Positions 1 through 14,283 are shown, counted from the first letter of the stretch. The stretch: DNA of 64,000 bases from Candidatus Obscuribacterales bacterium (GCA_019637435.1 JAHBVO010000006.1:372001-436000); one strand, 5' to 3'. Notes: generated by a model not told the origin, from the letters alone. Numbers and translations are program-made.

Positions 1-474
1 TAGAAAGTGGTGATTGTTATCATCGTCGAAAAAAACCGCATAGTGTTTCAGCGTACCGGGTTTCTGCTCCCAGTAATAAAACAACGAGCGTCCATTGAAT
101 TTCGCACCTGGAACTCTTTTGCGCTCACCCCAGACATCGACGATGATTCCAGCATCGTCCATCATGAGTACAATCTCTTCGGCGGGTCCCTCGTCCGCAT
201 CTTGAAACGGCAGCTGCGGAGGATGTAGAACCAAAAATTCATCTGTGAATTCTGCTACCGGAGCATTGCGACCGGCAGAGGAGAATGTTTTTCCGCGACT
301 GTCGCGCAGCGTTTTTTTCAGGTCACGAACATCGAGTTCGTCCACAAGACTAAGAGACTCGGTAAACTGCTCACCAGATGGGAAAGCGTTTCCGGCGCCG
401 GTCGGAGAAACACCTGGCAGACTTGTATGTCCGCCCTGGGCATCGTTGTTAGCTTCGTCATCTTGAGGGTCCAT
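1..474 (-). CDS. Partial protein with PAS-like segment, runs off left edge
   Basis: Reading leftward from ATG at 474-472, the frame stays open to base 1, giving 158 residues without a stop, so the gene is truncated by the window. The first ~60 residues are acidic and Gly/Ser/Pro-rich, probably disordered. Residues ~100-155 contain an EEIVLMMDDAGIIVDVWG stretch followed by GAKFNGRSLF, which resembles the first strands and helix of a PAS fold; this is a resemblance, not a secure domain call. It begins 45 bp after the stop of the HerA-like ATPase gene and is probably the fourth gene of the same leftward operon. The ribosome-binding site is weak (GGAA about 11 bases before the ATG). A sensor kinase or cyclase is possible but the catalytic part is outside the window. 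Confidence 0.7.
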   Translation of the reverse strand, partial: MDPQDDEANNDAQGGHTSLPGVSPTGAGNAFPSGEQFTESLSLVDELDVRDLKKTLRDSRGKTFSSAGRNAPVAEFTDEFLVLHPPQLPFQDADEGPAEEIVLMMDDAGIIVDVWGERKRVPGAKFNGRSLFYYWEQKPGTLKHYAVFFDDDNNHHFL

Positions 475-519
475 AAACTATTCTGTTCCAACCGCGCTTC
501 GTGCTTGAGACCTAGTCTA

Positions 520-3500
520 CTAACCTTGTTGTTCCCCGCCGCCTTCTTCACTTTCTTTCTGGAAATTCTCCAGAGCTGTTCTTACCTTGTGGAGCAAGAC
601 CAACTGAGCGTCCGTAGATAACTGCTGATCCTTAATCAAGTGCGCTGCCAAACAGTACGCCAGATCGACATCGCCCTGACTTACCAGACGTTCGGTAAGC
701 AGTCGGCAGAACCAGGCAGCAGAGTCGGAAGCCGGCGTATCCTTTCGGTTAATAGAAGAATTGAAGTCGAATTTGATTTTTGGATCTCGAACAACTTCCG
801 ACACTTCGAAACGATACAAACACTTCGAAGTGCACGGACCACAGGTAGGAAGCGGTCCCTGGTCACGTTTATGCAATTCGATAAAATCATCGCGCCACTG
901 GCGCAGAACGTTGATGTCCAGTTTTCGGTTTACTTCAGTGGGTTGGAAGGCTGGTCTCAAGAGATTCAACCACCGCATGTGCTGTTCTCGCACCTGGTCG
1001 TAAAACCAATAGTTTTCCTCACCCTTGCGCTCGAAGTATCTCTCGGTCGCCTGAGTTAGAACGCACCAGGTTATGCCGGTGATATTTCCGGTTCTCGCTC
1101 GACCACCAATGACACGCTGAATTTCGTGAATGATCTGCGCACGAAAGTGAACCAGCTGAGTCAAATCTTTCAGCGTGGATAAGAGATAGCGGTTGTAGAC
1201 TTGCCTGAAAAGCGTATCGTCAGCGACAGGTACGGCTGTGTCCAGAATCGTCGAATCGCATCGGTGCAAACAAAAACGGCAGCCGAGATGCCGGTCGAAC
1301 TTGCCGACGATATCTAACGGTTTCATCGCCTGCCTGACGACCTCATCAGATTCTTCCGGTGTCCTCGGCGGTGGCACCTCTTTTGTCTTGTCGAACATGA
1401 TCGCAAGGTGGAACGGTTGTTCCATCTTCTCAGCGTAAACAATCGCGCGCCCCTGTCCGAGCGCTGTTACGTGCCTCTTTTGAATGTCGTCCAAGTTCAT
1501 AGCACCACCCATGGAGTCACGGTCATCGACCGCCACGATACGGTGCATAACTTTCAAGTTAGTGTTCTTCAACGCTTCCGGAGCCAGTTTGTTCGGGATT
1601 TGGTCCGCGATGATGAACCCTTGTCCATACGAACGAATTTCTGCAAGCATGTTGGTGAAGAACTCAACTGCTTTACCCGCAGGGTTGGCGGATTCACCCG
1701 ATTGCCCGGTCGGCACGTTCTTCAAAAGACGGTGAGCCTCCTCGATCAACATGACGTGTTTCAAGTCATCGTGCGGACCGCCGGCTTCTCGATATTCATA
1801 GAGGAATACGAGCAACATTCCCATGAGGAAAGACTTTTCACTATCTTCGGAAACCATCTTCAGTTCGATAACTGTAGGTCTTTTGAACAGCGCTTCAGCA
1901 GGGATTGACCGGCGCGTGTTTAGCATCTGCCCCTTACCGCCGATCAGTAGAGAGCCGATACGAGCTTTCAGAGCGGCTTGTACGTCAGGTCCGATTCTTT
2001 CTGAATATCCGAAACTCTCGACGACCGGATCGATAATTTCGAAAAGATCCTTCATGGTCGGGTAAATTTCCGGCGGGCAATCGGGGTCGCCAGGCTCGAT
2101 TCCCGGAGGCAGTCGCCTGTTCTTGTTGTTTACCAGATCCCATCCGCGAACGTTATAAATTTCGTTCAACGCTTTTTCCAATACCTGCGGCATCGGAGAA
2201 TACATTTCAAAACTGGCGTTAAATACTGACTTGAGCGCGTCCAGGTGGGTTTGAACTTTTACGCCTCGCATGATTTCGAAAGGGTTCAATCTAAACGGTG
2301 ATACTGTTTCATCACCCAGAGAAAACGCCTGTCCAATACCTTTAAACTGTTCGGACATCAGCATCATGTGCCGATATTCCGATTTCGCCGGCTCGATAAC
2401 CATGAATGGAATCTTGTAATTCCAAAGTTGACCCAGCAAGTAGAAGCAAGTATTCGTCTTGCCGCCCCCTGTGACTCCGCAGACGATGGTGTGCTTCTGC
2501 ATTGCGTCAACGTCGATGTAATAAAGGTTCCCCGTATCCATGCCGCGGTCGAGGATGTTCCCAATCGCGATCGTTCGCGTCGGATCCTTCGGAGGAACTG
2601 GCGCTAAGGAGAACTCTGCGGACCTTCGAATTCGGAAGCCCGGCATCTCACGCTTTGGCAAGTGAACAAACGCAGACAACATGCGAGAGTTCAACGGCGT
2701 CAAAAATTTGTATTCTAAGAGATCTTGGAAGATCTCATCGTTTCGTTTGTTTCTAAGCAATCCGAAAGATTGAACGTGAGGTTGAAGACCCTTGATCTCG
2801 TGCGTGCGAAGCGGTGTTGGACGGCTGGTTTCATCAACATACGTTGCGCGAATCAAGGACTGTAGTCTGACAAATACGGAACGATCCGGAGCAAAGAAGT
2901 AAACAGCAGTCAACCAATGTCCGACCGCGATACCCAGCTGAACATGCTTCAAGTAAGCATCTTGAAGTTCAAGATAATATTTGATTCTTCGTTTCTTTTC
3001 CGGGTCTTCATTTTCCTGCGCGCGCTGGATCTGGTCGACAACAGTCATCTCTTCCCGGTTTACTTTCTGGTTTGGAATCGGGATTGCGAGCACGAGGAAG
3101 CCGAAGTCATGCCCCTGAAGACCAGTCGCAAGACGTTCTATCTGTTCCGATTCCATGGTATCACCAGCAGTGGACTTCAAAGCCGGGATTCCTGTAACAA
3201 GACCGGTATGGACAGCAAGTGGATCAACCATGCGCTTCATCTGCTCCGTCGTAAACGGCTCATTATGAATATCAACACCGTTGTAGACACTGTGCATGAT
3301 CGAGCGCAAAGACGTATAAGCAACCATATTCGCACTGCTGTCGCCGTTGCCGGTTGAGTCGGCAGGCAGCGAGACGCCCATATAGTAGTTGACCCCGGTC
3401 TTGTTTCCGAGTACAACGAACGAGAGATTAGCTTTCTGGCTGTGCAAGCCGGTCAAGGCATCCTCAGAAAGGTACATCCGCTTAGGCGGCTTGCTTGGAT

Positions 3501-3720
3501 CCTGGTCTTGTTGAGGCTGTTGACTCTGTTGATTTTTTTCACGTTCGATGTCCCACGAACGCAAAACACCGTCGATGCGCACGAAGGTGAGATCGGGGAG
3601 CGGCCAGCTGTGCAACTGGGCTCCGTCAAACGGTGTGACCTCGAGATCATCAAGGTCATAGCGCCTGAGGTCGGCGATTTTCTCTTCCCAAATGTTGCGG
3701 TCTCTAGATGTACTCACCAA
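520..3720 (-). CDS. HerA/VirB4-like P-loop ATPase with two CX2CX3C clusters
   Basis: A 1066-residue ATPase of the HerA/FtsK superfamily (DUF87-type). The N-terminal ~380 residues are a family-specific region with a Gln-rich linker near 62-80. Walker A is GVTGGGKTN at ~415-423, followed by a PAKSEYR segment typical of HerA/VirB4 relatives; Walker B is MLIEEAH at ~657-663. After the ATPase core come two identical-spacing cysteine motifs, C814-x2-C817-x3-C821 and C960-x2-C963-x3-C967, suggesting a metal-binding C-terminal domain. No membrane segment is visible. Translation starts at TTG (3720) or GTG one codon later, with AGGA ~9 bases upstream. It lies 169 bp after the zinc-ribbon membrane gene and reads with it. 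Family knowledge: such motors form hexamers moving DNA or protein; the substrate here is unknown. Confidence 0.85.
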   Translation of the reverse strand: MVSTSRDRNIWEEKIADLRRYDLDDLEVTPFDGAQLHSWPLPDLTFVRIDGVLRSWDIEREKNQQSQQPQQDQDPSKPPKRMYLSEDALTGLHSQKANLSFVVLGNKTGVNYYMGVSLPADSTGNGDSSANMVAYTSLRSIMHSVYNGVDIHNEPFTTEQMKRMVDPLAVHTGLVTGIPALKSTAGDTMESEQIERLATGLQGHDFGFLVLAIPIPNQKVNREEMTVVDQIQRAQENEDPEKKRRIKYYLELQDAYLKHVQLGIAVGHWLTAVYFFAPDRSVFVRLQSLIRATYVDETSRPTPLRTHEIKGLQPHVQSFGLLRNKRNDEIFQDLLEYKFLTPLNSRMLSAFVHLPKREMPGFRIRRSAEFSLAPVPPKDPTRTIAIGNILDRGMDTGNLYYIDVDAMQKHTIVCGVTGGGKTNTCFYLLGQLWNYKIPFMVIEPAKSEYRHMMLMSEQFKGIGQAFSLGDETVSPFRLNPFEIMRGVKVQTHLDALKSVFNASFEMYSPMPQVLEKALNEIYNVRGWDLVNNKNRRLPPGIEPGDPDCPPEIYPTMKDLFEIIDPVVESFGYSERIGPDVQAALKARIGSLLIGGKGQMLNTRRSIPAEALFKRPTVIELKMVSEDSEKSFLMGMLLVFLYEYREAGGPHDDLKHVMLIEEAHRLLKNVPTGQSGESANPAGKAVEFFTNMLAEIRSYGQGFIIADQIPNKLAPEALKNTNLKVMHRIVAVDDRDSMGGAMNLDDIQKRHVTALGQGRAIVYAEKMEQPFHLAIMFDKTKEVPPPRTPEESDEVVRQAMKPLDIVGKFDRHLGCRFCLHRCDSTILDTAVPVADDTLFRQVYNRYLLSTLKDLTQLVHFRAQIIHEIQRVIGGRARTGNITGITWCVLTQATERYFERKGEENYWFYDQVREQHMRWLNLLRPAFQPTEVNRKLDINVLRQWRDDFIELHKRDQGPLPTCGPCTSKCLYRFEVSEVVRDPKIKFDFNSSINRKDTPASDSAAWFCRLLTERLVSQGDVDLAYCLAAHLIKDQQLSTDAQLVLLHKVRTALENFQKESEEGGGEQQG

Positions 3721-3889
3721 TGAAGGAATCCTGTAGAGAGGTTCTGTTTAATGACTTCTTATACTAATTGAATAACTGATCTAACTATACACGTGACTCT
3801 TCTAAAACTCTGCTCCTGCCAGTAAATATGCCCCTTTGCCTTTCGCAGATCCGAAGATTACCGCACGGCGACTGATAATTGTTCGCATC

Positions 3890-5875
3890 TCAGCCACCGC
3901 CACCGGGAGTGGCGAACCCACCTTGGGTCGGCATGCCCTGCGGCATAGCTCCTTGCGGTGGATAGCCTTGCTGCTGTGGATAACCTTGCTGCGGAAAACC
4001 TTGTTGGGGAGCGCCTTGCTGTTGTGGGTAGCCCTGCTGAGGGAAGCCTGGCTGCCCCTGCGGGTTCTGCTGACCAGACATTCCAGGCGGCTGCGCGCCT
4101 TGCAATCCCGTCGCACCCGGTTGAGCCATCAATTGATTCGGTAAGCCGGCTCGCCATGTGCCTTTCAGTCGCTCCTCATCTGTTTTTCTCCAGGAATAAC
4201 TACCTGAGGCAAAGGAGCCATCCTGATTCTGCCCGATCGTTCCACTAAAAAGAATCGGCCATATGTAGCCAACCGAGTCGTATTGCTTCTGCAGCGATAA
4301 TATATTTCCTTTGGAAACCTCGCCGGTAAGCGTGAAATCACCTACATTGTCGCGCCCCTTACCACTTATGCTTTTGCCGGATTGCCGGATCTCTACTCCA
4401 AAACTCTGAAAAGGTTGTCCACTTTCAGAATCAGTTAGAAGGACCATCCATTGAGATGGCAATGCAGCACCATTCGCGGTGGCACCTCCCGTTAACTGCC
4501 CACCACTAAATTCACCGAGTTTGGTGTACACCACAAATCCAATCACAGCTAAAACACCGACGATACCAATCATGGCGGCAACCATTGCCAATGGATTTTT
4601 CTTGGGTTTAGGGCGCGCAGCAGCCTTCGCCTCCGCTCTCATCTTGCCAATATCAATCTCCTGTTCCAGAGGAGCTCTTTTGGGATTAAACACACTTCGC
4701 TCTCTCGGCTTCTCGCTTACCAGAGCATCACCTGCGGTATCATTCACGTCACTCTCACTCGAAGCAGATGGTCCTTGAATAAACTTCGATCGAAACTCAT
4801 CGCGTCCTTCCGGCGTTTCGAAACCTATGACGCCGCTGCTTTGCAGCGCGCCTTGCATGCGCAATGCCGAAATTCTGCTGAGTCCCTCTTCAAAGGATAA
4901 TCTGCTGTCGATGTTTAAAGAAGATTCGTTGTGCTGATCACTATCATCGCCGTCATTGTTCGCATCATGAAATGACAAAGCATTGGCCGAAAGCGAGACC
5001 GCGCTTAAAGGCAACTCTTGAACCAAAACAATATTGAAATCACTCGAGGCGGGAAGCAAACCAAATACGGGCACACCGGATGCTGTCTCCTGAGCTTGTG
5101 TGAGACATATCGTCTGACCATCATTTTCCTGGACAACCAGCAATAGCGAGTCGGCCAGCATGAATGAAGGATAAGCTGTACGAACGATCTTCGATGTCTT
5201 GCCAGTCGTTTCTAAGGTATTTGATTTGGATGATGACGATGACGACGCGCGTTCAACTCCCGGCAATGCACTATCCGGAGCGGGTGCAATTACTTGCTCC
5301 GACGAATTTCGCCTTATCTCGGCAGACGACGAATCAACCGCATCCGCACTGTATTGAGCAACTGTACTCTCGGAAGAAGAAGAAGAAGAAGAAGAAGAAG
5401 AAGAAGAAGAAACAAATTCGCGCGCAGGAGGCTCAGCGGTGCGAATCGCAGCCCTGAAAAAATCATTCTTCTCATCACCTTTTGCCTGCTGCGGCGGTCC
5501 GAAGTCAGCAAACATACCCTCAGCCAGAAGCGTTTGGCTCATAGGCTTACTTTCATCAGCACGCTGAACATCCCCGCTGTCCTGGAGGAAAGCACGACTT
5601 CCGTGAAACTGCCTCGGTTTTGGAGTCAGGGCATCTTTGAACTTACATCTGGTAACAACCCGCTCCATTACCAAAGGGTCGTTCTCCGGACGCAGATGCT
5701 GGGGGCTCGAAGCAGGCGCACGCTTAATAACAAGGTTAGGCATCACGGTCGGAGAGTACCGCGACATTACGCTGCCGCAGTCACGACAATTTTTCACTCG
5801 CTGCCTGAGGACGACGCCGCAATGCTGGCAAATCAACAGGCCTGCGTTCGCGTCCTGCGTCCACTTATTGTTCAT
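3890..5875 (-). CDS. Zinc-ribbon, single-pass membrane protein with extracytoplasmic beta-domain
   Basis: 661 residues, unknown function. An N-terminal zinc ribbon (C16, C19, C30, C33) is followed by a motif pair, SPTVMPN and VMERVV, also present in the adjacent 1494-residue protein. The middle (~60-400) is acidic and low-complexity, including a 13-Ser run coded by a GAA/TTC microsatellite. One transmembrane helix lies at ~430-452. The outer part (~475-590) has the beta-rich pattern of a small barrel, with the motif GTWRAG matching GKWRAS in the neighbour. The C-terminus is a Pro/Gln/Gly/Tyr repeat (PQQGYPQQQG-like), then a Gly tail. The ATG overlaps the upstream stop by one base (TAATG), so translation is coupled to the VirD4-like gene. 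Topology predicts ribbon inside and beta-domain plus PQQG tail outside. Confidence 0.85.
   Translation of the reverse strand: MNNKWTQDANAGLLICQHCGVVLRQRVKNCRDCGSVMSRYSPTVMPNLVIKRAPASSPQHLRPENDPLVMERVVTRCKFKDALTPKPRQFHGSRAFLQDSGDVQRADESKPMSQTLLAEGMFADFGPPQQAKGDEKNDFFRAAIRTAEPPAREFVSSSSSSSSSSSSSESTVAQYSADAVDSSSAEIRRNSSEQVIAPAPDSALPGVERASSSSSSKSNTLETTGKTSKIVRTAYPSFMLADSLLLVVQENDGQTICLTQAQETASGVPVFGLLPASSDFNIVLVQELPLSAVSLSANALSFHDANNDGDDSDQHNESSLNIDSRLSFEEGLSRISALRMQGALQSSGVIGFETPEGRDEFRSKFIQGPSASSESDVNDTAGDALVSEKPRERSVFNPKRAPLEQEIDIGKMRAEAKAAARPKPKKNPLAMVAAMIGIVGVLAVIGFVVYTKLGEFSGGQLTGGATANGAALPSQWMVLLTDSESGQPFQSFGVEIRQSGKSISGKGRDNVGDFTLTGEVSKGNILSLQKQYDSVGYIWPILFSGTIGQNQDGSFASGSYSWRKTDEERLKGTWRAGLPNQLMAQPGATGLQGAQPPGMSGQQNPQGQPGFPQQGYPQQQGAPQQGFPQQGYPQQQGYPPQGAMPQGMPTQGGFATPGGGG
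5373..5411. repeat. Trinucleotide microsatellite (GAA)13
   Basis: Thirteen uninterrupted GAA units on the + strand, read as a poly-Ser tract (TCT codons) in the leftward zinc-ribbon membrane gene. Unit changes would alter tract length without shifting the frame. Confidence 0.9.
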
Positions 5876-8800
5876 TAGCCGGCCTTGTCGCTATCGTTGT
5901 CTCTATCCTTGCTCTTCTTACTCTTCTTCTTATCGCCGAAACTATCAGTGATGGCATGCATTTTCTCAACCAACTTGCGATTGATCTTCTTCTCCGAAAT
6001 ATCTTTGAAGTCAGGCGCCCTCATCTTAAAGACACCAGCTACGGTACCAACCCTGTAACAGAAGTACGTCTGAATTTCTTGACCGACGATTCTGTCGATA
6101 TTCAGCTTTTCTTCGTCCATAATCAACTCGAACTGTGGCGAAGTGTTGACCTGGTTAAAGAAGTTCTGAATCGTCTGGTGTTTGATCTTTCGTCCATCCA
6201 CACGGAACATCTGCGGACCGAGCATGTCTCCGTCCTTTTTAGCCAGAGCGAACACAGCCATAGTGCCCATATTGATTGTAAGTTGGTTTCTGTAATCCTC
6301 GGGGAGGTGTTGCAGCGTCTTGATACTGCCGATGAAACCAATCTGATACCGCCGAGTTTCCGACGTTATCGTTTCGATTGTCTCCTTTTCGATGAAGCTA
6401 TCCATTTCATCGAGATAGAGCGAAACTGGACGATCGTCGTTATTCGACTTCGACAAGTTCATTGCCGCTTGCTGAATTCCAGTCACAATCAAGCTTCCCA
6501 ACAGGTTGGCATTCTGGTCCAACTCGCCTTGTGGAACTTTTACAATCAGAATCTTCTTCTGCTTGATGATGTCTTTCAATTTAAGGTCACTGACCGGCTT
6601 CGTAAGAATCGGACGAATACGTCCATCCGACAGCATCGGTCCAACTCTGTTCAAAATCGGCTCAACCCAGTTGATCCACTGATCCGTTCTAGCCAGCTTC
6701 TTGTACTGGTTCCAAGTTTCCAGAATGGTAATGTACTCGGTCTTGTCGTGTTTCTTACGCTCAACAGCTTCCAACATGATGTCTCGGAAGTCGTTGTCCT
6801 GCAGGAGGTTTGGCAGGTCGGTCAAGGTTCGTCCATTGGCCATCAACAGCAAAGCAGCGTTTCTCAAAATGTTGGCAGTTTGAGCGTTCCATTGACTCTG
6901 AGCGCCCGGAGGCTCTGTGTAAATTGCTTTAAAACCGTGAACGATTGCCGACGATGCCGCTTGCAGGTCGCCATCATCCGGCATCTCGAGAGGGTTGTAC
7001 GCTAATGAACCGGCCTTGTACGTCGGGTCTACGAGTACCACGCGTTTAGCGTATTTCGAGCCTTCAGGCTGCGAAGCGATCCACTCAATGACTAAATCAC
7101 ACAGCTGTCCGTCGGAATCAATCACAACAACTGCTCGATCTTCAGACTTGATGTCGTGCGTGATCATTGATGCCATCAGCCTTGTCTTACCTTTGTCGCC
7201 ACCACCGATGCACAATATATGTGGATTAGCTTTGCGAACATCAGGAGGCAAATTCAAGAATTTAGGAGTCCAGAACGACCACCAGCCCCATTCCATGCGC
7301 GTTCCGAACGGAGTGCCACCAGGAGTGAGAGGCTTACCGTACTCGCGCACCATCTTCATGTGGTCAGGTCTAAACTGCGATGGAATGTATTTCTGCTTCT
7401 CCCAAACGTTCATCCAGCCTGAGGGACCGAAGAGCTTGAGGAAGAATAAGAATATGAGCACACCCAAAGTGACCAGACCGATCGCTATAGTTAAGAACAT
7501 CTGTTGGAGGTTTCCAGGTCCAGGCTTTCCAGTGGCCGAGGGAGTTGGAACGTTGACCAGACCAGGCTTGGGCAGACCCATATTAGGTAATGCAAACGCA
7601 CCTGCTTGAGGATTGTTGGCAGCAACCATTGTCTGCGATGCGCGCCACTTTCCTCGAATAGGTATTACTTTCGACGGCTTCAGCGTGCTGAATGACGAAC
7701 CGACGCGCTTCTGAGTTTGATAGGCTCCGACGGCTTGAAGCTGAGCGCCGTTTGGTATCAACTTTCCTTGGAACACTATGTACTCATTGTGAGCGTTGTA
7801 TTTATGCCGCGACTCCTGATCGTATCTCATGTTGAAAATGATGACGTCCGGTGCTTGCAGTTGCCCCTGTATCTCGAACACACCAGACGAGTCTTTGCCC
7901 TGACCGGCAAAATTGACGCCTCCCTGGTTCAAATTCATTTGTCCGGTCAGGATTTTCGCGCCGACCTGACTTTCAATTGTCCAGTTGCCACCAACAACTG
8001 GAATTCCATTGGTGAACTCCGCTGCAGGCGCCTGTTGCCCCTGACCGGGCATTCCCTGTCCAGGTTGGCCCTGTCCGGGCATACCTTGCATTCCACCCTG
8101 CCCAGGCATTCCACCGGAAGCCGACATGGCGCCCTGACCGGCGAGACCACCGAAAGCCCCAGCTCCCTGTCCCAATCCGGAGCCGGCTCCGGAACGGCCA
8201 CCGCCCAGACCTCCCAGACCACCGAGGGCTCCCATGCCACCACCTGCGGGGGCTTGAGCAGTCTGCTGCTGAGCTGCGCCACCGTTCGCCATGTTGACGA
8301 AACTCATCACCCAGCCTGGGATTTGAATGGCGATAAACAGCCCGACTGCACATAGCACGCCGGCAGTTTTTCTTGAAACATTCAATCCGATGAATTTGAC
8401 ATCTTCTTCCAGCCAGCCAAGTGCGCCGCCAGATGCTGCGCTGGAGTCATCATCATCGTCTTCGTCGTCATCGGAAACCTTTCCTTTTTTGACTGCTTTC
8501 GTTATTGTTTTTGCTCTAGACTTAGGAGCAGTCTCATCACCACTGAAGTTCCGACGCTTCGGCGGTTTGTACTTCGGCGTATCATCATCGTCATCATCAT
8601 CTTCTTCATCGGTGAGCTTGTCTTCGATATCGCTCGAGGATAAAACATTCGCATCATCGTCGCTGACCTTCAAGCGCGTCTTTGTCTGGGTCTGGGTCAA
8701 GCTCTTAGGCATGGCTACTTTAGGACGATCTTGGGCGGTTGAGTCTACCGCAGAGTCAATAGTCTGCTGCGGAGTAGCGGGGGACGGCACTTCGGAACTG

Positions 8801-10359
8801 ACATCAGCGGAGACGGTCGGAGAACTGGCATTTGGCTTATCGGCATCATCGGAGAATGATTGTTTTCGGGCAGCAGCGCTGGCCGGGCTTGAAAAGAAAT
8901 CGAAACCGTTATCGTCATCACCGAAGAAACTCGAGGACTCCGCGCGCTTCATCTCCGGTTCCGGCGATGCCACCGCGGGCGGTTCCACAGACGGAGCTGC
9001 GGACACCGGAGTAACCGGCGCAGGAGGAGCAACTGGAACCATTGGTGTGTCTGCACCTGGTGCGGCTGAGCGCGCGGAAAAACTTTCCAGTGACGTGCTC
9101 GCCGTATCCGGCGTATTGGTTTCAGCTGTGAGATCAGACTCAATAGGATTTCTCTCCGGCTCGGCTTTGGTTTGAGGACCGAAGAAATCTTCGAGTTCGG
9201 ATTTACTGCTGGATTCAAAAAAGTCGTCTTGCGAATCGCGTGCGGCACCAGGTTCGGTACCAGGTGCGAAATTCTCCGCAAACGAACTTGTCTCGGAAGA
9301 TGGTTCAGTTAGCGGACTCTCGGTGGCGGGCGCGCCGGGTTCAAGAGCGACCGACTCGCGAATGGGTGCTGTCGACTGTGTCGGCTCTATCGACTGTGAA
9401 TCGCTCGGCGCCTGCGTCGGCTCAGCCCGCTTGTTCAACATCTGATTGGCAACTGCTCCAACACCGATTCCGGCACCAATGGCGATAGAAATTGCGGCTC
9501 CTGGGTGTGCCCCAAAGCCAGCCAGATGCATACTGGGATTTGTAATCGAGGAGGATTGCGGTTGAGCCGCAGTCTCAGGTTGAACGTCTTGCGCCTCGAG
9601 ATCTCGAGCAGCTGGTATCTCTGATGCGAGGGTCGGGAAATCGGTCGAGCTATCTTCCAGAGACATTTCGCCGAGCGCTTCAACCGCTTTATTTTTCGGC
9701 AGCGCCGGCGGTTCAGGCTCTTCAATCAACTCCACAGATTCTCGAGCATTTTTTAAATAGTAATCGTTGGGACTTCCAGGATTATAGAACCCGCTCCCCG
9801 AGCTGGGAGCAGCTGGCTGTGCCTGCGGCTGAGGATCGGAATTCCAGAACTCACCGGATGGCGCACTTGAAGAATTTTGCGAACCAGGATCGACGAAACG
9901 CCCCTCGGCAGGCGTCATTTGAGAGCTAGAGTTGCTCCAGCCGAAGCCGTTGGGATCCTGAGCCGGGTCGGCATACTGAAGAGTGGCGTACGGACTTCCA
10001 CCGCCATTGCCTCCATATCCATCGTGGCCATTTCCGCCATTGCCGCCGTTGCCATTACCGCCGTTCCCTCCATAGCCTGCATATCCGTTGCTCGGAGAGT
10101 AGTCTTCTCCTCCATCGTCGTACATCGGCGTGGATGTCACCTGCGGTCTCAGGGTCATGACACTGACTTGACGCTCAGTGACGACTCTTTCCAGCAGAAG
10201 ATGGTCCTGACTGTATCTCACAGCTAGCGGCGGACGCTCAACAGGAAAGTTGGGCATCGCAGTCGGTGAGTTCAGTGCCAGTTGTATGCCGCATCCGGAG
10301 CAATGTTTCCCCTTAGTCCGAATAACTACCCCACAACTCTGGCAAATAAGAAGTTTCAA
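5875..10359 (-). CDS. Zinc-ribbon membrane protein fused to VirD4/TraG-like coupling ATPase
   Basis: 1494 residues and first gene of the leftward operon. In order: zinc ribbon (C6, C9, C20, C23), SPTAMPN/LLERVV motifs shared with the next protein, a long disordered region with Gly/Asn and Asp/Glu/Ser-rich runs (~90-660), a transmembrane helix at ~665-690, a Gly/Met/Gln-rich segment, a beta-rich domain (~783-906) like that of the neighbour, a second transmembrane helix (~950-978), then an ATPase. Walker A is GGGDKGKTR at ~1050-1058; Walker B is SLYLDEMDSF near 1316, within the TraM-recognition-like region of TraD/TraG/VirD4 proteins. The C-terminus is Lys/Asp-rich. VirD4 relatives couple substrates to type IV secretion channels; whether this one moves DNA, protein or something else is unknown. 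Start ATG at 10359. Confidence 0.85.
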   Translation of the reverse strand: MKLLICQSCGVVIRTKGKHCSGCGIQLALNSPTAMPNFPVERPPLAVRYSQDHLLLERVVTERQVSVMTLRPQVTSTPMYDDGGEDYSPSNGYAGYGGNGGNGNGGNGGNGHDGYGGNGGGSPYATLQYADPAQDPNGFGWSNSSSQMTPAEGRFVDPGSQNSSSAPSGEFWNSDPQPQAQPAAPSSGSGFYNPGSPNDYYLKNARESVELIEEPEPPALPKNKAVEALGEMSLEDSSTDFPTLASEIPAARDLEAQDVQPETAAQPQSSSITNPSMHLAGFGAHPGAAISIAIGAGIGVGAVANQMLNKRAEPTQAPSDSQSIEPTQSTAPIRESVALEPGAPATESPLTEPSSETSSFAENFAPGTEPGAARDSQDDFFESSSKSELEDFFGPQTKAEPERNPIESDLTAETNTPDTASTSLESFSARSAAPGADTPMVPVAPPAPVTPVSAAPSVEPPAVASPEPEMKRAESSSFFGDDDNGFDFFSSPASAAARKQSFSDDADKPNASSPTVSADVSSEVPSPATPQQTIDSAVDSTAQDRPKVAMPKSLTQTQTKTRLKVSDDDANVLSSSDIEDKLTDEEDDDDDDDTPKYKPPKRRNFSGDETAPKSRAKTITKAVKKGKVSDDDEDDDDDSSAASGGALGWLEEDVKFIGLNVSRKTAGVLCAVGLFIAIQIPGWVMSFVNMANGGAAQQQTAQAPAGGGMGALGGLGGLGGGRSGAGSGLGQGAGAFGGLAGQGAMSASGGMPGQGGMQGMPGQGQPGQGMPGQGQQAPAAEFTNGIPVVGGNWTIESQVGAKILTGQMNLNQGGVNFAGQGKDSSGVFEIQGQLQAPDVIIFNMRYDQESRHKYNAHNEYIVFQGKLIPNGAQLQAVGAYQTQKRVGSSFSTLKPSKVIPIRGKWRASQTMVAANNPQAGAFALPNMGLPKPGLVNVPTPSATGKPGPGNLQQMFLTIAIGLVTLGVLIFLFFLKLFGPSGWMNVWEKQKYIPSQFRPDHMKMVREYGKPLTPGGTPFGTRMEWGWWSFWTPKFLNLPPDVRKANPHILCIGGGDKGKTRLMASMITHDIKSEDRAVVVIDSDGQLCDLVIEWIASQPEGSKYAKRVVLVDPTYKAGSLAYNPLEMPDDGDLQAASSAIVHGFKAIYTEPPGAQSQWNAQTANILRNAALLLMANGRTLTDLPNLLQDNDFRDIMLEAVERKKHDKTEYITILETWNQYKKLARTDQWINWVEPILNRVGPMLSDGRIRPILTKPVSDLKLKDIIKQKKILIVKVPQGELDQNANLLGSLIVTGIQQAAMNLSKSNNDDRPVSLYLDEMDSFIEKETIETITSETRRYQIGFIGSIKTLQHLPEDYRNQLTINMGTMAVFALAKKDGDMLGPQMFRVDGRKIKHQTIQNFFNQVNTSPQFELIMDEEKLNIDRIVGQEIQTYFCYRVGTVAGVFKMRAPDFKDISEKKINRKLVEKMHAITDSFGDKKKSKKSKDRDNDSDKAG

Positions 10360-10990
10360 GGTACCGCTCCAATAGAATCTTAGATTTACTTACCCGGCTT
10401 TGGCGATTCCCGCACAGCCCAGCGGCTGATTAAAAACACAGTTCGGAACAAAAGCCGTTCAACTAGCTCGAGAAATTCTGGGTTGTTAGTAAGTGTCGAA
10501 CTGCTGAACGGAGAAGCGATCTGGCTACTCAAGCTGCATACTAACCTCAGCAAATACACTTGTCAAGCGGCTTTATTACTAATCATCGCTCTTTTTGTTC
10601 AGTTTGTCTCGGAAAGATTAGGCAGATAAATCGGACGATTTCGCGAAACCGAATATCGAATTTGTATTTCATTTAAAACAGTAGAACTACAGCTTTCTAC
10701 TGTTTATGGGGGTCCAGAGAGACATCAATAGAGCGAGTTCGTGGCAAATATATACCTCACCCAAAATTGAAGTGAAGACATCCGCTAAGCAAGGCATTAA
10801 ACTAGGAATAGGCAGAAATCTGCCTGGGAGTTCATCCTGACTACCTGCGCGTTTGCTTAAACAAACGAGATTGACCGAGAGCGAGCGCAGAGTTACCAGC
10901 GATTGCGGGTACAAGTAAATAAGGTGTATCCGAATGTCAGATCACGGGGGCGACTGACACTCGGTGTAAGGATCTGGAGAAGGCAACCAA
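10360..10990. other. 631-bp divergent intergenic region with hairpins
   Basis: No convincing protein gene. It separates the leftward ATPase operon from the rightward coiled-coil gene and should hold both promoters. Visible inverted repeats are a 10-bp stem AACAGTAGAA/TTCTACTGTT at about 10677-10705 that could act as a terminator or regulatory hairpin, GGCAG/CTGCC at about 10810-10825, and CGTTTG/CAAACG near 10850-10866. An untranslated leader or small RNA is possible but not shown. Confidence 0.6.
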
Positions 10991-13975
10991 ATGGCACGGG
11001 ACGAAGACAGTAACGGCAATGGCAATGGCAACGGGAATGGAAAGTCTGGAAGACAAGACTCGCCGCTCTCCGCTCGCAGAGCCCGTCTACGCTCATTAGC
11101 GAAACAGGCGCTACCTCCGGATCCATACTCAAAAAAGCAGGATACGGAAGGCGAAGACCCAGCCGCAGGATTTGAATTTGCCGATCAGCAAGGAGCCGCG
11201 AGCGGAGCAATTGTACCGCCGCAGCCGACCCAGCAGGCAGCCGAACCCTGGCTCGATGAGGCCATGAAAGCAATAACCCAAGATCCAGCACAGCAAGGCG
11301 CGGCTCCGCAACAACCTGCGATGCCAGTCGGTCATGATCCGAACATGCTCGGGATGCAGTCTCCGATAGGCGACGCGGGCTATGCAGCAAGCGGATCCTA
11401 CGGGCAATTTCCGCAAGAAAACCCTTTTCCACCCGACCACTTCAACCAGGGTCAAGCGCAGTTTCCATCACCGCAACAACAGTTTCCGCAAGATCCGGCT
11501 CAGCACTTCGGACAACAACCAGACATGAGCCAGTATGCAGTTTCGACGGCTCAAACAGCCCCCGTCGCCCCTCCACCCAACCCCGCCGCGGCAGACATCT
11601 TCGGCGAACAGGATGGAGAATCGTTCGAAAGTTTTATGCAGGGTCCTCCCGAGGCGCCGACAGCCTTCATGGGCATGTCGCAGGAGCCAACCGGGTATGG
11701 TCAGATGCCTGCCACGCCGGTGATGCCCTCCGAGCCATCGACAGGCTTGGCTCAGGAACAGCCGATTGAATCACCTTCACAATCGACATCGCAATCGATT
11801 GAGGTGTCCTACCTGCCTAACTCAAGCGACAAAGATTTCACGTCAAGTCTGGATTTGGACTACGGAGATCTCGATGATTCGAAGGTTTCAGAAGAAGATG
11901 ACTCCGTGACGTCTGAGACAGCCGGAAGTTCACCCCATTCCGAATCCGCTGGAGACTCCGATGCGGAACCGGAAAGCCGACCGTGGGAAGTGAACAAGCC
12001 AGGTCCCGGAAAGATTGAGGATGCCTGGACCGCGGAAGATGATGGCACAAAAACAGTTGCTCGCAACTTGGTGACGGAACCTCCCCGTGAACCGATTCCT
12101 GCCCGAGAGGAAGAAGCGCCCAAGGAGCCGACACCAGCCCCGAAGAAAAAGAGCCGGCGCAAATCTGATCCGGAAGAGGTCTCGGAAAGAGCATCAGAGC
12201 CAAAGGCTTCTGATGAAGCGGACGAGCAGGGCTCGGAGAGTTCGGAATCAAGCGAAGTCGAAACACAAAAAACGGAACGAAGACCAGCTCACTCAAAGAA
12301 GGTCGAAGAAGAAGAGAAGCCCGAACAGCAAGAAAGAGCAGAGAAGAAATTGCAAGACCCATCGCCGTCGCCGTCTGCGGACTCACCATCCGGGTCTGTA
12401 GTTCCTGTTGAACTCCTGACGAAGTCACAAGCAGAGGCGCTGGAGTTGCTAACGTCAATCGACCAGGCGCTCGGAATCTGCGCAATGAATTTATCCTCGC
12501 TGCAGAGCGCGTCTATCGAACAGACTGACGTCATAAAAAATCTACGCGAGACTCTTCAAAATCAAACATTTTTTGAACTGGGATTGAACCTCAATACCTT
12601 GATGGAATCTATGTCAGCCGCTCTTGAGCCAATGAAGGCAGTGGGCGAATTGGTTCCAGCCATCGATCAGTTGGTATCGACAATGGTGGCGCAGGAGGAG
12701 GTTAAAAAGGAAACACGTCTCAGTCCTGACAAGCTGGTCATGAGCCTTGCCGACCAACTCGGAAACGGTCAAATCGATCCATGGACGTTCAAATGTGCAT
12801 ACATGGCGGTTTATCCGGACGAGCATCCTGCAGACTTGCTGCACCGTCTCGTCGACCTGCTAGGCACCCAAAGATTATCAGGAGACATGTTCCGCGCCGC
12901 CTACGACGCGGTTCAAGCAGCCGAGCCACCGCGTCGCGTTATGAATGGCGACAAGGAAGTGATTGAAGTCGTAAAGGAAGTGATCAAGGAAGTCGAAGTC
13001 GTTAAGGTTGTTCCGGACGAAGAGGTTCTTCGACAGCTCGAGGACTTGCGGCGAGCCAATGACGACCTCAAAGCTCTCGTCGATGCTAAAGATTCCGATG
13101 TCGGGACGAAGTTCGAGGAGCGCGAGCGTGAGATGGCTCAGCGCCTCGAAGAGAAAGAGCAAGAGCTGAACAAACGCCTGGGCGAGCGCGAAGCCGAGTT
13201 CGCAGAACTGCTTGCTTCCAAAGAGCACGAAATTCAAGAAACACAAGAGATGCTGCATTCGCGGTTCGAAGAATTCAATTCGCGATATGAGGAGATGGTA
13301 GAGACCGTCAACCAGAGAGATGAAGAACTCAAGGTCAAAGACGATGATCTGATGCGTAAAGAGTCTGAGATCACGCAACTCAAAGCGCAACTCGATGAGC
13401 TCAAAGACTCATTCAAAGAAACCGTCGACAATTTACAAAAGCAACTGACCACCACGCAGAAAGCCGCTCAGGAAGCCAGCATGCAAGCGCAGGCTGTGGC
13501 AAAACCGGAAGAGCCCCAGAAGCCGGCTTCAAACTTCTTCGACACCGAAGCCAACAAGCCTGCACCAACAGGTAATTTCCTGGACAGCCCCCAGGCTCAA
13601 CGACCGCTTTTCCAAAATCAGATGGATACGTTCAACAGCATGTCAAAGGCTCCGCCCAGCCAGCCAGGTGGGCCACCCACGCCTAGCGAGCCTAAGCCGT
13701 TCGGCGGAGGCGCTCCGCCTACCGCGCCCATGCCGGAACCATCGAACCAGGCAGTGCCAAAACCGCCCCAGCCGTCTCCGGGCATGAGTTCACTGACAGG
13801 CACTGGCAGCTACGGAAGCGGAGTGCGCGCACAAGTTTTCGAAGTCATCGTACGCCAGGCGCTTGCAGGCGCGCCATGGCGCGAAATTTGCGCCGGTCCG
13901 ATGAGCGTCAACAACATATCGCCGGACGAAGTTGAAACCGAAGTCAAACGTCGCGAGCAACTGCTCAAGAAATAG
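10991..13975 (+). CDS. Long disordered and coiled-coil protein next to the ATPase operon
   Basis: 994 residues, no recognised family. The start ATG follows GGAGAAGG about 8 bases upstream. Residues 1-470 are low-complexity: an SNGNGNGNGNG repeat, Pro/Gln-rich stretches, then acidic Ser/Glu-rich segments. Residues ~470-640 form a helical region that could be a folded domain. A Val/Glu/Lys stretch (~655-672) leads into a heptad-rich coiled coil (~673-835) with many Glu, Lys and Arg. The C-terminal ~70 residues contain a compact segment with APWREICAGPMSVNN that looks conserved in style. There is no signal peptide or membrane helix, so a cytoplasmic scaffold or tether is likely. Divergent position beside the two-motor operon suggests a functional link, which is inference. 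Confidence 0.8.
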   Translation: MARDEDSNGNGNGNGNGKSGRQDSPLSARRARLRSLAKQALPPDPYSKKQDTEGEDPAAGFEFADQQGAASGAIVPPQPTQQAAEPWLDEAMKAITQDPAQQGAAPQQPAMPVGHDPNMLGMQSPIGDAGYAASGSYGQFPQENPFPPDHFNQGQAQFPSPQQQFPQDPAQHFGQQPDMSQYAVSTAQTAPVAPPPNPAAADIFGEQDGESFESFMQGPPEAPTAFMGMSQEPTGYGQMPATPVMPSEPSTGLAQEQPIESPSQSTSQSIEVSYLPNSSDKDFTSSLDLDYGDLDDSKVSEEDDSVTSETAGSSPHSESAGDSDAEPESRPWEVNKPGPGKIEDAWTAEDDGTKTVARNLVTEPPREPIPAREEEAPKEPTPAPKKKSRRKSDPEEVSERASEPKASDEADEQGSESSESSEVETQKTERRPAHSKKVEEEEKPEQQERAEKKLQDPSPSPSADSPSGSVVPVELLTKSQAEALELLTSIDQALGICAMNLSSLQSASIEQTDVIKNLRETLQNQTFFELGLNLNTLMESMSAALEPMKAVGELVPAIDQLVSTMVAQEEVKKETRLSPDKLVMSLADQLGNGQIDPWTFKCAYMAVYPDEHPADLLHRLVDLLGTQRLSGDMFRAAYDAVQAAEPPRRVMNGDKEVIEVVKEVIKEVEVVKVVPDEEVLRQLEDLRRANDDLKALVDAKDSDVGTKFEEREREMAQRLEEKEQELNKRLGEREAEFAELLASKEHEIQETQEMLHSRFEEFNSRYEEMVETVNQRDEELKVKDDDLMRKESEITQLKAQLDELKDSFKETVDNLQKQLTTTQKAAQEASMQAQAVAKPEEPQKPASNFFDTEANKPAPTGNFLDSPQAQRPLFQNQMDTFNSMSKAPPSQPGGPPTPSEPKPFGGGAPPTAPMPEPSNQAVPKPPQPSPGMSSLTGTGSYGSGVRAQVFEVIVRQALAGAPWREICAGPMSVNNISPDEVETEVKRREQLLKK

Positions 13976-13980
13976 AGATA

Positions 13981-14283
13981 CTAGCGTTGCTGGCTTTCCA
14001 TCAGCCGTTCGTACTGGTGCCAGAGGCGCACGACCGGTTCCAAATTACTCATGTAGTGCGCGTTTACTTGAGACGGCAGACTCTGGAAAGTGGCTAGAAT
14101 AGTGAAGATCACCAGCCCCAGGTTGACCAACGTGCAGAGCACTATGACCGTGCGCGTGAAGCGAAATTGATCGTCCACCTTTTTGCTGAGTTGGGCGAAC
14201 TGTTCGTCCAATGTCTTATCCTTGCTGTCCATTTTTGAAAGACGCTCCCGCACAATTCCGTCGGTCTGAAGTTTGGCTTCCAA
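13981..14283 (-). CDS. Small coiled-coil, single-pass membrane protein
   Basis: 100 residues. Residues ~1-42 are charged and heptad-like, residues ~45-66 (TVIVLCTLVNLGLVIFTIL) form a transmembrane helix, and the C-terminal third is soluble. The gene is convergent with the coiled-coil gene, with only 5 bp between the stops. It lies just after the GT-C glycosyltransferase gene in the same direction and may be its last operon partner. Function unknown. Confidence 0.7.
   Translation of the reverse strand: MEAKLQTDGIVRERLSKMDSKDKTLDEQFAQLSKKVDDQFRFTRTVIVLCTLVNLGLVIFTILATFQSLPSQVNAHYMSNLEPVVRLWHQYERLMESQQR

What the first reader, a model, noticed from the sequence alone, without database searches (positions are those of the whole stretch)
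1..14283. Candidate undescribed two-motor membrane system
A leftward operon joins a VirD4/TraG-like ATPase fused to a zinc-ribbon membrane protein, a second zinc-ribbon membrane protein and a HerA/VirB4-like ATPase, next to a divergent 994-residue coiled-coil gene. Type IV secretion systems also pair VirD4 with VirB4 motors, but no channel, pilus, relaxase or lytic transglycosylase gene is seen. The stop/start overlap of the first two genes supports a working unit. It may be a stripped-down export or DNA-handling machine.
Basis: partly seen in the sequence, partly recalled or inferred. Interest (0 to 1): 0.75.

Follow-up and report, generated by a model that had tools for sequence, protein, structure and literature searches.

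The report
Split secretion-system motors in Obscuribacterales
The window holds a real, deeply conserved operon with two ATP-driven motors, but it is not a machine without a channel: the likely channel genes sit at other chromosomal sites, so this looks like the motor end of a domesticated, DNA-transfer-type secretion system whose cargo is unknown.

Summary
A leftward operon in an Obscuribacteraceae genome (non-photosynthetic Cyanobacteriota) encodes a 1494-aa zinc-ribbon/VirD4-type coupling ATPase, a zinc-ribbon membrane protein, a 1066-aa VirB4/HerA-type ATPase and a small protein, with a divergent coiled-coil gene. The block is syntenic in about 18 genera of the family; HerA is nearly as conserved as EF-Tu. 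The VirD4/coiled-coil pair persists in the sister family, where HerA is elsewhere. Neither motor has an ortholog in 21 other genomes of the class.

No channel gene was recognised in the window, but two universal chromosomal operons elsewhere (39/39 Obscuribacterales, 0/21 others) carry a VirB4 ATPase with VirB3-, VirB6- and VirB8-like genes. One has its own VirD4; the other has none. The window VirD4's closest outside relatives adjoin VirB4 genes, which in three of four cases fit the VirD4-less operon best. Most likely the window gene is that operon's relocated coupling protein, joined in one family by a HerA-type motor instead of a relaxase. This resembles the domesticated systems of Patescibacteria and the archaeal Ced/Ted-HerA link: a new variant of a known kind. 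Cargo and direct interaction are untested.

The parts
1..474 (-). P1, start of a 191-aa protein that ends just left of the window; last gene of the operon, no known domain
   Evidence: found after HerA in most family members, 35-73% identity
520..3720 (-). HerA/VirB4-type ATPase, 1066 aa (TTG start); no TM segment; Cys-bearing C-terminal helical domain (C814, C817, C960, C963, C967 invariant within Obscuribacterales)
   Evidence: model pLDDT 85, best folds R388 VirB4 TrwK (4e-15) and HerA (7e-13)
2452..2478 (-). Walker A of HerA (GVTGGGKTN)
   Evidence: alignment A1, invariant
1732..1758 (-). Walker B region of HerA (HVMLIEEAH)
   Evidence: alignment A1
3890..5875 (-). P3, zinc-ribbon membrane protein, 661 aa; resembles parts of the VirD4 N-terminal half, in three genera only
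5875..10359 (-). P4, zinc-ribbon / disordered / TM / beta domain / TM / VirD4-type coupling ATPase, 1494 aa (TTG start)
   Evidence: fold matches DotL, Cag-beta, TrwB
10285..10347 (-). N-terminal zinc ribbon of P4 (CxxC...CxxC)
   Evidence: sequence; present in all 20 syntenic copies listed, absent from the off-locus paralogue
7624..7989 (-). Predicted periplasmic beta domain of P4, avidin-like barrel, between the two TM segments
   Evidence: model residues 147-268, pLDDT mostly 77-89; Foldseek rhizavidin/afifavidin TMt about 0.6
5920..7326 (-). VirD4-type motor domain of P4
10991..13975 (+). P5, divergent coiled-coil protein, 994 aa, conserved mainly from about residue 480; linked to VirD4 in both families

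Best explanation
The operon is the motor end of a domesticated, chromosomal type IV secretion (T4SS)-like apparatus of Obscuribacterales whose genes are dispersed. P4 is its inner-membrane coupling protein (VirD4 type): two TM helices hold a periplasmic beta barrel, the motor ring faces the cytoplasm, and a long tail ending in a zinc ribbon may capture substrates or partners. Its channel partners (VirB4, PrgI/VirB3-like, giant VirB6-like, VirB8-like) are encoded by the conserved VirD4-less operon at G000:C2:262063-273947. The HerA/VirB4-type ATPase, joined to this operon in Obscuribacteraceae, would be a soluble ring motor that processes or feeds substrate (most likely DNA) to P4, in the place a relaxosome takes in conjugation. 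Shown: genes, conservation, co-distribution, domain order, predicted folds. Inferred: P4 pairing with that channel operon, HerA acting with P4, ring form, DNA as cargo, direction of transport.
For: P4 motor: coupling-protein Pfam models over cut-off; Foldseek DotL, Cag-beta, TrwB at 3e-8 to 1e-7; TM-periplasmic-TM-motor order in 19 of 20 copies. Channel parts: L191 operon with VirB4 (P-loop_TraG 1e-19, TraC_F_IV 2e-10), a 127-aa 2-TM protein (marginal PrgI 0.07), a 2202-aa multi-TM protein and two 1-TM proteins, syntenic in both families; PDB profile hit VirB4 4ag5 8e-14. Co-distribution: VirB4 39/39 Obscuribacterales and 0/21 class relatives, VirD4 35/39 and 0/21, HerA in all but a few incomplete genomes and no ortholog in the 21. 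Pairing: a second operon has its own VirD4, leaving P4 and the VirD4-less operon unpaired; outside relatives of P4 overlap or adjoin a VirB4, and in three of four loci that VirB4 scores better with the VirD4-less operon's model (112 v 78, 131 v 69, 124 v 80; fourth tied 74.1 v 73.7). P4 groups with those relatives apart from the other VirD4 and plasmid-type coupling proteins, SH-aLRT 99 (quick tree). HerA: same strand as P4 in all syntenic family loci examined, VirB4/HerA fold, strong purifying selection.
Against: P4 and the proposed channel operon were not linked in any genome examined. The VirB4 tree does not resolve which operon the outside VirB4s are nearest. The VirB6-, VirB3- and VirB8-like calls rest on size, TM count and gene order; Pfam is silent or marginal. 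HerA is unlinked from VirD4 in the sister family. A Verrucomicrobia genome carries P4-like VirD4 beside zinc-ribbon and HerA genes with no VirB4 found, so a VirB4-free pairing is possible. No outer-membrane core, pilin or relaxase was identified for this system.
Confidence: 0.58

Rival explanations
1. A self-sufficient two-motor machine: VirD4 and HerA work together at the inner membrane, without a VirB-type channel, as an intracellular DNA pump or an export device of new type.
For: Tight block in all f1 genera examined; Verrucomicrobia locus L164/L214 has VirD4, a zinc-ribbon TM protein and HerA together, and no VirB4 was found in that genome at 1e-5; related small membrane-protein genes lie directly before HerA in 13 loci of other phyla and within a few kb in 7 more.
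Against: Every Obscuribacterales genome that has the pair also has VirB4 homologues of this kind; HerA is unlinked in the sister family; outside relatives of P4 often adjoin VirB4.
Confidence: 0.2
2. A chromosome-handling machine replacing FtsK: P4 or HerA pumps chromosomal DNA at division.
For: No canonical FtsK was found in the own genome or most of the family: the weak PF01580 match shared by the genomes is the VirB4 gene; HerA is nearly as conserved as EF-Tu; the locus lies beside the EF-Tu and ribosomal gene region.
Against: The class relatives searched lack FtsK matches over cut-off too and have neither motor, so FtsK loss does not require this operon; P4 matches coupling proteins, FtsK only weakly.
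Confidence: 0.1
3. An anti-invader (defence) module using a HerA motor.
For: HerA relatives in Chloroflexi lie beside TIR-PP2C, TIR-vWA and zinc-ribbon kinase genes; PADLOC HerA and mad8 models match weakly.
Against: No partner defence gene recognised in the operon; near-universal, syntenic and slowly evolving rather than patchy; no relative confirmed in IMG/VR, two distant phage records, and only distant ones on plasmids.
Confidence: 0.07
4. A remnant of an integrated conjugative element.
For: Motor families are conjugation-type; a Rhodococcus plasmid HerA lies near a MOBP relaxase gene.
Against: No relaxase or integrase recognised beside it; same chromosomal site across the family; dN/dS 0.026 for HerA. 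Conjugation-type coupling proteins exist apart, at G000:C2 about 30 and 51 kb, and a VirB4/TrbI set in G004.
Confidence: 0.05

Closest known systems
Chromosomal T4SS of Patescibacteria (PMC12102498)
   Same: Chromosomal, widespread in the lineage, PrgI/VirB3, VirB4, VirB6 parts, no relaxase in most clusters, VirD4-type coupling protein usually far from virB4
   Different: Here the VirB6-like proteins are giant, the coupling protein carries a zinc ribbon and an avidin-like barrel, and it shares an operon with a HerA-type motor
Archaeal Ced/Ted DNA-transfer systems with linked HerA (PMC9905601)
   Same: Domesticated T4SS derivative with VirB4 and VirB6 counterparts, no relaxosome, HerA gene linked in Ted loci
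   Different: Ced/Ted are described with VirB2, VirB4 and VirB6 counterparts and no VirD4-type coupling protein was named in the passages read; here HerA is linked to VirD4, and no NurA or Rad50 was recognised beside it
VirD4/TraG/DotL coupling proteins
   Same: Motor fold, Pfam models, two TM segments with a periplasmic part
   Different: Long zinc-ribbon tail of several hundred residues and a predicted avidin-like periplasmic barrel
HerA helicases and VirB4 (TrwK)
   Same: DUF87 motor; predicted fold closest to TrwK and HerA
   Different: Sequence falls far below curated HerA, CedD and anti-phage HerA cut-offs; extra Cys-bearing C-terminal domain; no nuclease partner seen
Vampirovibrio chlorellavorus T4SS (PMC4451040)
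   Same: Same bacterial class, T4SS parts
   Different: That one is a conjugative VirB4_T-class system, two of its three operons on plasmids, with a TrbE-type VirB4; the PF03135 model is absent from this genome and from nearly all relatives

Membership tests
Type IV coupling protein (VirD4/T4CP) | Coupling-protein motor domain | tested here: met
   PF10412 and PF02534 over cut-off; DotL, Cag-beta, TrwB folds at 3e-8 to 1e-7, on a model of modest confidence (pLDDT 61)
Type IV coupling protein (VirD4/T4CP) | Two N-terminal TM segments with a periplasmic segment before the motor | tested here: met
   Hydropathy in 19 of 20 copies; model helices 19-47 and 305-333 flank the beta domain
Type IV coupling protein (VirD4/T4CP) | VirB4 partner in the same genome | tested here: met
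   39/39 Obscuribacterales have VirB4 homologues, encoded elsewhere
Type IV coupling protein (VirD4/T4CP) | Moves substrate into a T4SS channel | not testable with these tools
   needs interaction and transport assays
Complete conjugative T4SS | Relaxase beside the motor or channel genes | tested here: not met
   none among the scanned genes at the window, L191 or L205; the relaxase found in this genome lies beside another coupling protein, L078
Complete conjugative T4SS | VirB3, VirB6 and VirB8 proteins | tested here: inconclusive
   right size, TM count and order around VirB4, but Pfam marginal or silent
Complete conjugative T4SS | Outer-membrane core (VirB7/9/10) and pilin | tested here: inconclusive
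   TrbI-like hits are weak, lack a clear VirB10 layout and also occur in relatives lacking the motors; pilin not searched
HerA helicase | DUF87/HerA central domain | tested here: met
   PF01935 27.9 bits over cut-off 23.2; HerA folds 7e-13
HerA helicase | Curated HerA model cut-off | tested here: not met
   NF040819 29 of 970 bits; NF042943 41.9 of 800; CedD NF053655 56 of 600
HerA helicase | NurA nuclease partner | not tested
VirB4 ATPase (for the window HerA protein) | VirB4 fold including the motor domain | tested here: met
   R388 TrwK 4e-15 (whole-length superposition loose); 4ag5 motor domain TMt 0.76
VirB4 ATPase (for the window HerA protein) | VirB4 sequence families (PF03135, PF19044, PF12846) | tested here: not met
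   no match at 0.1
HerA-based or MADS defence system | Defence partner genes in the operon | tested here: not met
   PADLOC: only HerA and mad8 motor models plus weak coiled-coil matches in P5

The most novel reading that the evidence does not exclude
A bacterial, relaxase-free DNA exchange system of three motors: a HerA-type motor, in place of a relaxosome, feeds chromosomal DNA to a zinc-ribbon/avidin-barrel coupling protein and on through a dispersed, vertically inherited T4SS channel, fixed as core equipment of a whole order of non-photosynthetic Cyanobacteriota, a bacterial parallel to archaeal Ced/Ted.
Probability: 0.2. Interest if true: 0.8.

Novelty: new variant of a known kind. Interest (0 to 1): 0.55.

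Why it matters
It would give Obscuribacterales, known mostly from environmental genomes, an order-wide transport machine that the papers found in the searched library do not describe. It adds a bacterial case to the pattern, described for Patescibacteria and archaea, of conjugation machines turned into chromosomal core functions. The HerA-VirD4 operon also makes a specific question testable: can a HerA-type motor stand in for a relaxosome in loading a T4SS?

Tried and rejected
FtsK replacement as the main idea: FtsK matches over cut-off are missing in the class relatives too, so its absence does not point to this operon. The weak FtsK match in every genome was first guessed to be UvrA; it is the VirB4 gene. 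VirB10: TrbI-like hits led to a widespread beta-domain protein in its own conserved neighbourhood, not a clear VirB10. Canonical VirB4 (PF03135): absent except in G004, whose locus is separate, and one weak hit in the VirB4 gene of G021. Phage origin: no relative confirmed in IMG/VR at this sensitivity and two distant unannotated phage records. Defence: no partner genes. Promoter-like sites are not above chance. A first attempt to scan the giant gene with Pfam failed on a frame error and was not repeated.

Full report
What was checked. The window is G000:C6:372001-436000 of a 7.66-Mb genome in six contigs. Named relatives in a public genome set, including Candidatus Obscuribacter phosphatis and several Candidatus Obscuribacterales, carry 79-94% identical HerA proteins, and record lengths show that several of them are the family members studied here (for example the 3,231,268-base contig of G029), so the genome belongs to Obscuribacteraceae or a close equivalent. 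P4 and P3 share one base of stop and start, TAATG. A fifth gene, P1 (191 aa), follows HerA leftward.

Conservation. tblastn of the window genes against 20-kb stretches of relatives found the order giant gene, P1, HerA, VirD4, P5, SelA, SpoU, EF-Tu in about 18 genera, with some neighbours missing here and there. Median identity to the window is 84% for HerA, 89% for EF-Tu, 48% for SelA and SpoU, and 44% for P5 over the matched part. Between two species of the genus, HerA has dN 0.048 and dS 1.87. In the sister family (three genomes) VirD4, P5, SelA and SpoU stay together, while HerA lies elsewhere, in tandem copies near giant genes. HerA and VirD4 are in nearly all Obscuribacterales searched, the exceptions being incomplete assemblies; none of 21 other class genomes has VirD4, and only short weak HerA matches occur there. 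P3 is young: only three genera have it, and it resembles the zinc ribbon and beta domain of P4.

Domains and folds. P4 carries an N-terminal zinc ribbon, a disordered stretch, TM, beta domain, TM and VirD4-type motor; the zinc ribbon is in all 20 syntenic copies listed and both TM segments were called in 19. Its AlphaFold2 model (residues 645-1485) has modest confidence, pLDDT 61, but a good beta domain and motor core. Foldseek gives DotL, Cag-beta, HerA and TrwB for the motor and, at E 0.002-0.009 and target TM-score about 0.6, avidin-type barrels for the beta domain. The HerA model is good (pLDDT 85); its best folds are the R388 VirB4 protein TrwK (4e-15), HerA-NurA (7e-13) and the VirB4 motor domain 4ag5 (target TM-score 0.76). 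By sequence it falls far below curated HerA, CedD and anti-phage HerA cut-offs. Five Cys in its C-terminal part are invariant across Obscuribacterales; that they bind metal is a guess.

The missing channel. A search for canonical VirB4 (PF03135) found one clear case, G004, and a weak hit in G021. That weak hit lies in the same frame as a weak FtsK match found in every Obscuribacterales genome of that search. The gene is a VirB4: P-loop_TraG 1e-19, TraC_F_IV 2e-10, PDB profile match to VirB4 4ag5 8e-14. It sits in a conserved operon (L191, G000:C2:262063-273947) after a 2202-aa multi-TM protein, a DUF2225 protein and a 127-aa two-TM protein with a marginal PrgI match, and before two single-TM proteins; in the sister-family copy, L199, no DUF2225 gene was grouped with the others. 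A profile of this VirB4 found it, or a second homologue, in 39 of 39 Obscuribacterales and in none of 21 class relatives. The second homologue lies in another conserved operon (L205, C2:1573415-1588753) with a multi-TM giant protein, a small TM protein, a single-TM protein and its own VirD4 (T4SS-DNA_transf 4e-19). The VirB3-, VirB6- and VirB8-like labels rest on size, TM count and order, not on family matches.

Who partners whom. The second operon has its own VirD4, and that VirD4 and P4 are not detected by each other's profile. The first operon has none and P4 has no local VirB4. P4-type VirD4 genes outside the order were found overlapping or adjoining a VirB4 in Streptomyces BHT-5-2, Embleya NBC_00888, Ktedonobacter racemifer and Ktedonospora. 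In three of these the VirB4 scores better with the first operon's profile than the second's (112 v 78, 131 v 69, 124 v 80); Embleya is a tie. A quick VirD4 tree puts P4 with these relatives and apart from the second operon's VirD4 and plasmid-type coupling proteins (SH-aLRT 99); the VirB4 tree leaves the question open, and both trees have long branches. A counter-case is a Verrucomicrobia genome with VirD4, zinc-ribbon TM protein and HerA together and no VirB4 found.

HerA elsewhere. Relatives at about 30-47% identity, many of them over most of the length, occur in Actinomycetota, Chloroflexota, Clostridia, Synergistota, Verrucomicrobiota, a haloarchaeon and others. Two families of small membrane-protein genes lie directly before HerA in 13 of these loci and within a few kb in 7 more. 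In the first family two members were scanned and show a weak zinc ribbon; the second shows a beta stretch and a TM segment by eye. Chloroflexi neighbours include TIR-PP2C, TIR-vWA and zinc-ribbon kinase genes. So a HerA plus small membrane protein module is broader than this order.

Reading. The best-supported account is a domesticated, dispersed T4SS-like apparatus whose coupling protein is P4 and to which a HerA-type motor was joined in Obscuribacteraceae. Known parallels are the Patescibacteria system, chromosomal, mostly without a relaxase and with the coupling protein often far from virB4 (PMC12102498), and the archaeal Ced/Ted systems, where HerA is linked in Ted loci and NurA-HerA is proposed to make the DNA substrate in place of a relaxosome (PMC9905601). 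What is shown is gene content, conservation, co-distribution and predicted fold. Pairing, cargo and direction are inferred. Papers searched under the organism and system names did not describe this system; most subscription journals are not in that library.

Noticed in passing
L008:2044-19845 (+), just left of the window: A 5933-aa gene, convergent with the operon, with LysM-like stretches and a zinc-ribbon-like motif near its C-terminus read by eye; its C-terminal part recurs at this site in most family members.
   Followed up: partly
L205, G000:C2:1573415-1588753: A second universal T4SS-like operon with its own VirD4, independent of the window genes.
   Followed up: partly
L077:9337-11631 (+), G000:C2 about 86 kb: A second P4-type VirD4 (58% identity in the motor) without the zinc ribbon, beside a PMT-type glycosyltransferase gene.
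   Followed up: no
L061 and L062: Shorter HerA paralogues: one near a reverse transcriptase gene, one directly followed by a protein kinase gene.
   Followed up: no
L137, L138: In Chloroflexi, HerA relatives lie beside TIR-PP2C, TIR-vWA and zinc-ribbon protein kinase genes, suggesting a signalling or conflict module.
   Followed up: no
Obscuribacterales genomes: No canonical FtsK in most genomes; G011 has a 2958-aa frame with several FtsK-type stretches and G002 a 1014-aa frame with one. How chromosomes are pumped at division is open.
   Followed up: partly
L059, L060: In the sister family HerA occurs in several copies, two in tandem, whose motor domains are nearly identical while their ends differ widely, near giant genes.
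   Followed up: no
window:61843-63693 (+): Another zinc-ribbon protein (616 aa, Pfam DZR 1e-6) with a proline-rich stretch, near the ribosomal gene region.
   Followed up: no
L078, L079: Conjugation-type coupling proteins, one beside a relaxase, at G000:C2 about 30 and 51 kb; likely mobile elements.
   Followed up: partly
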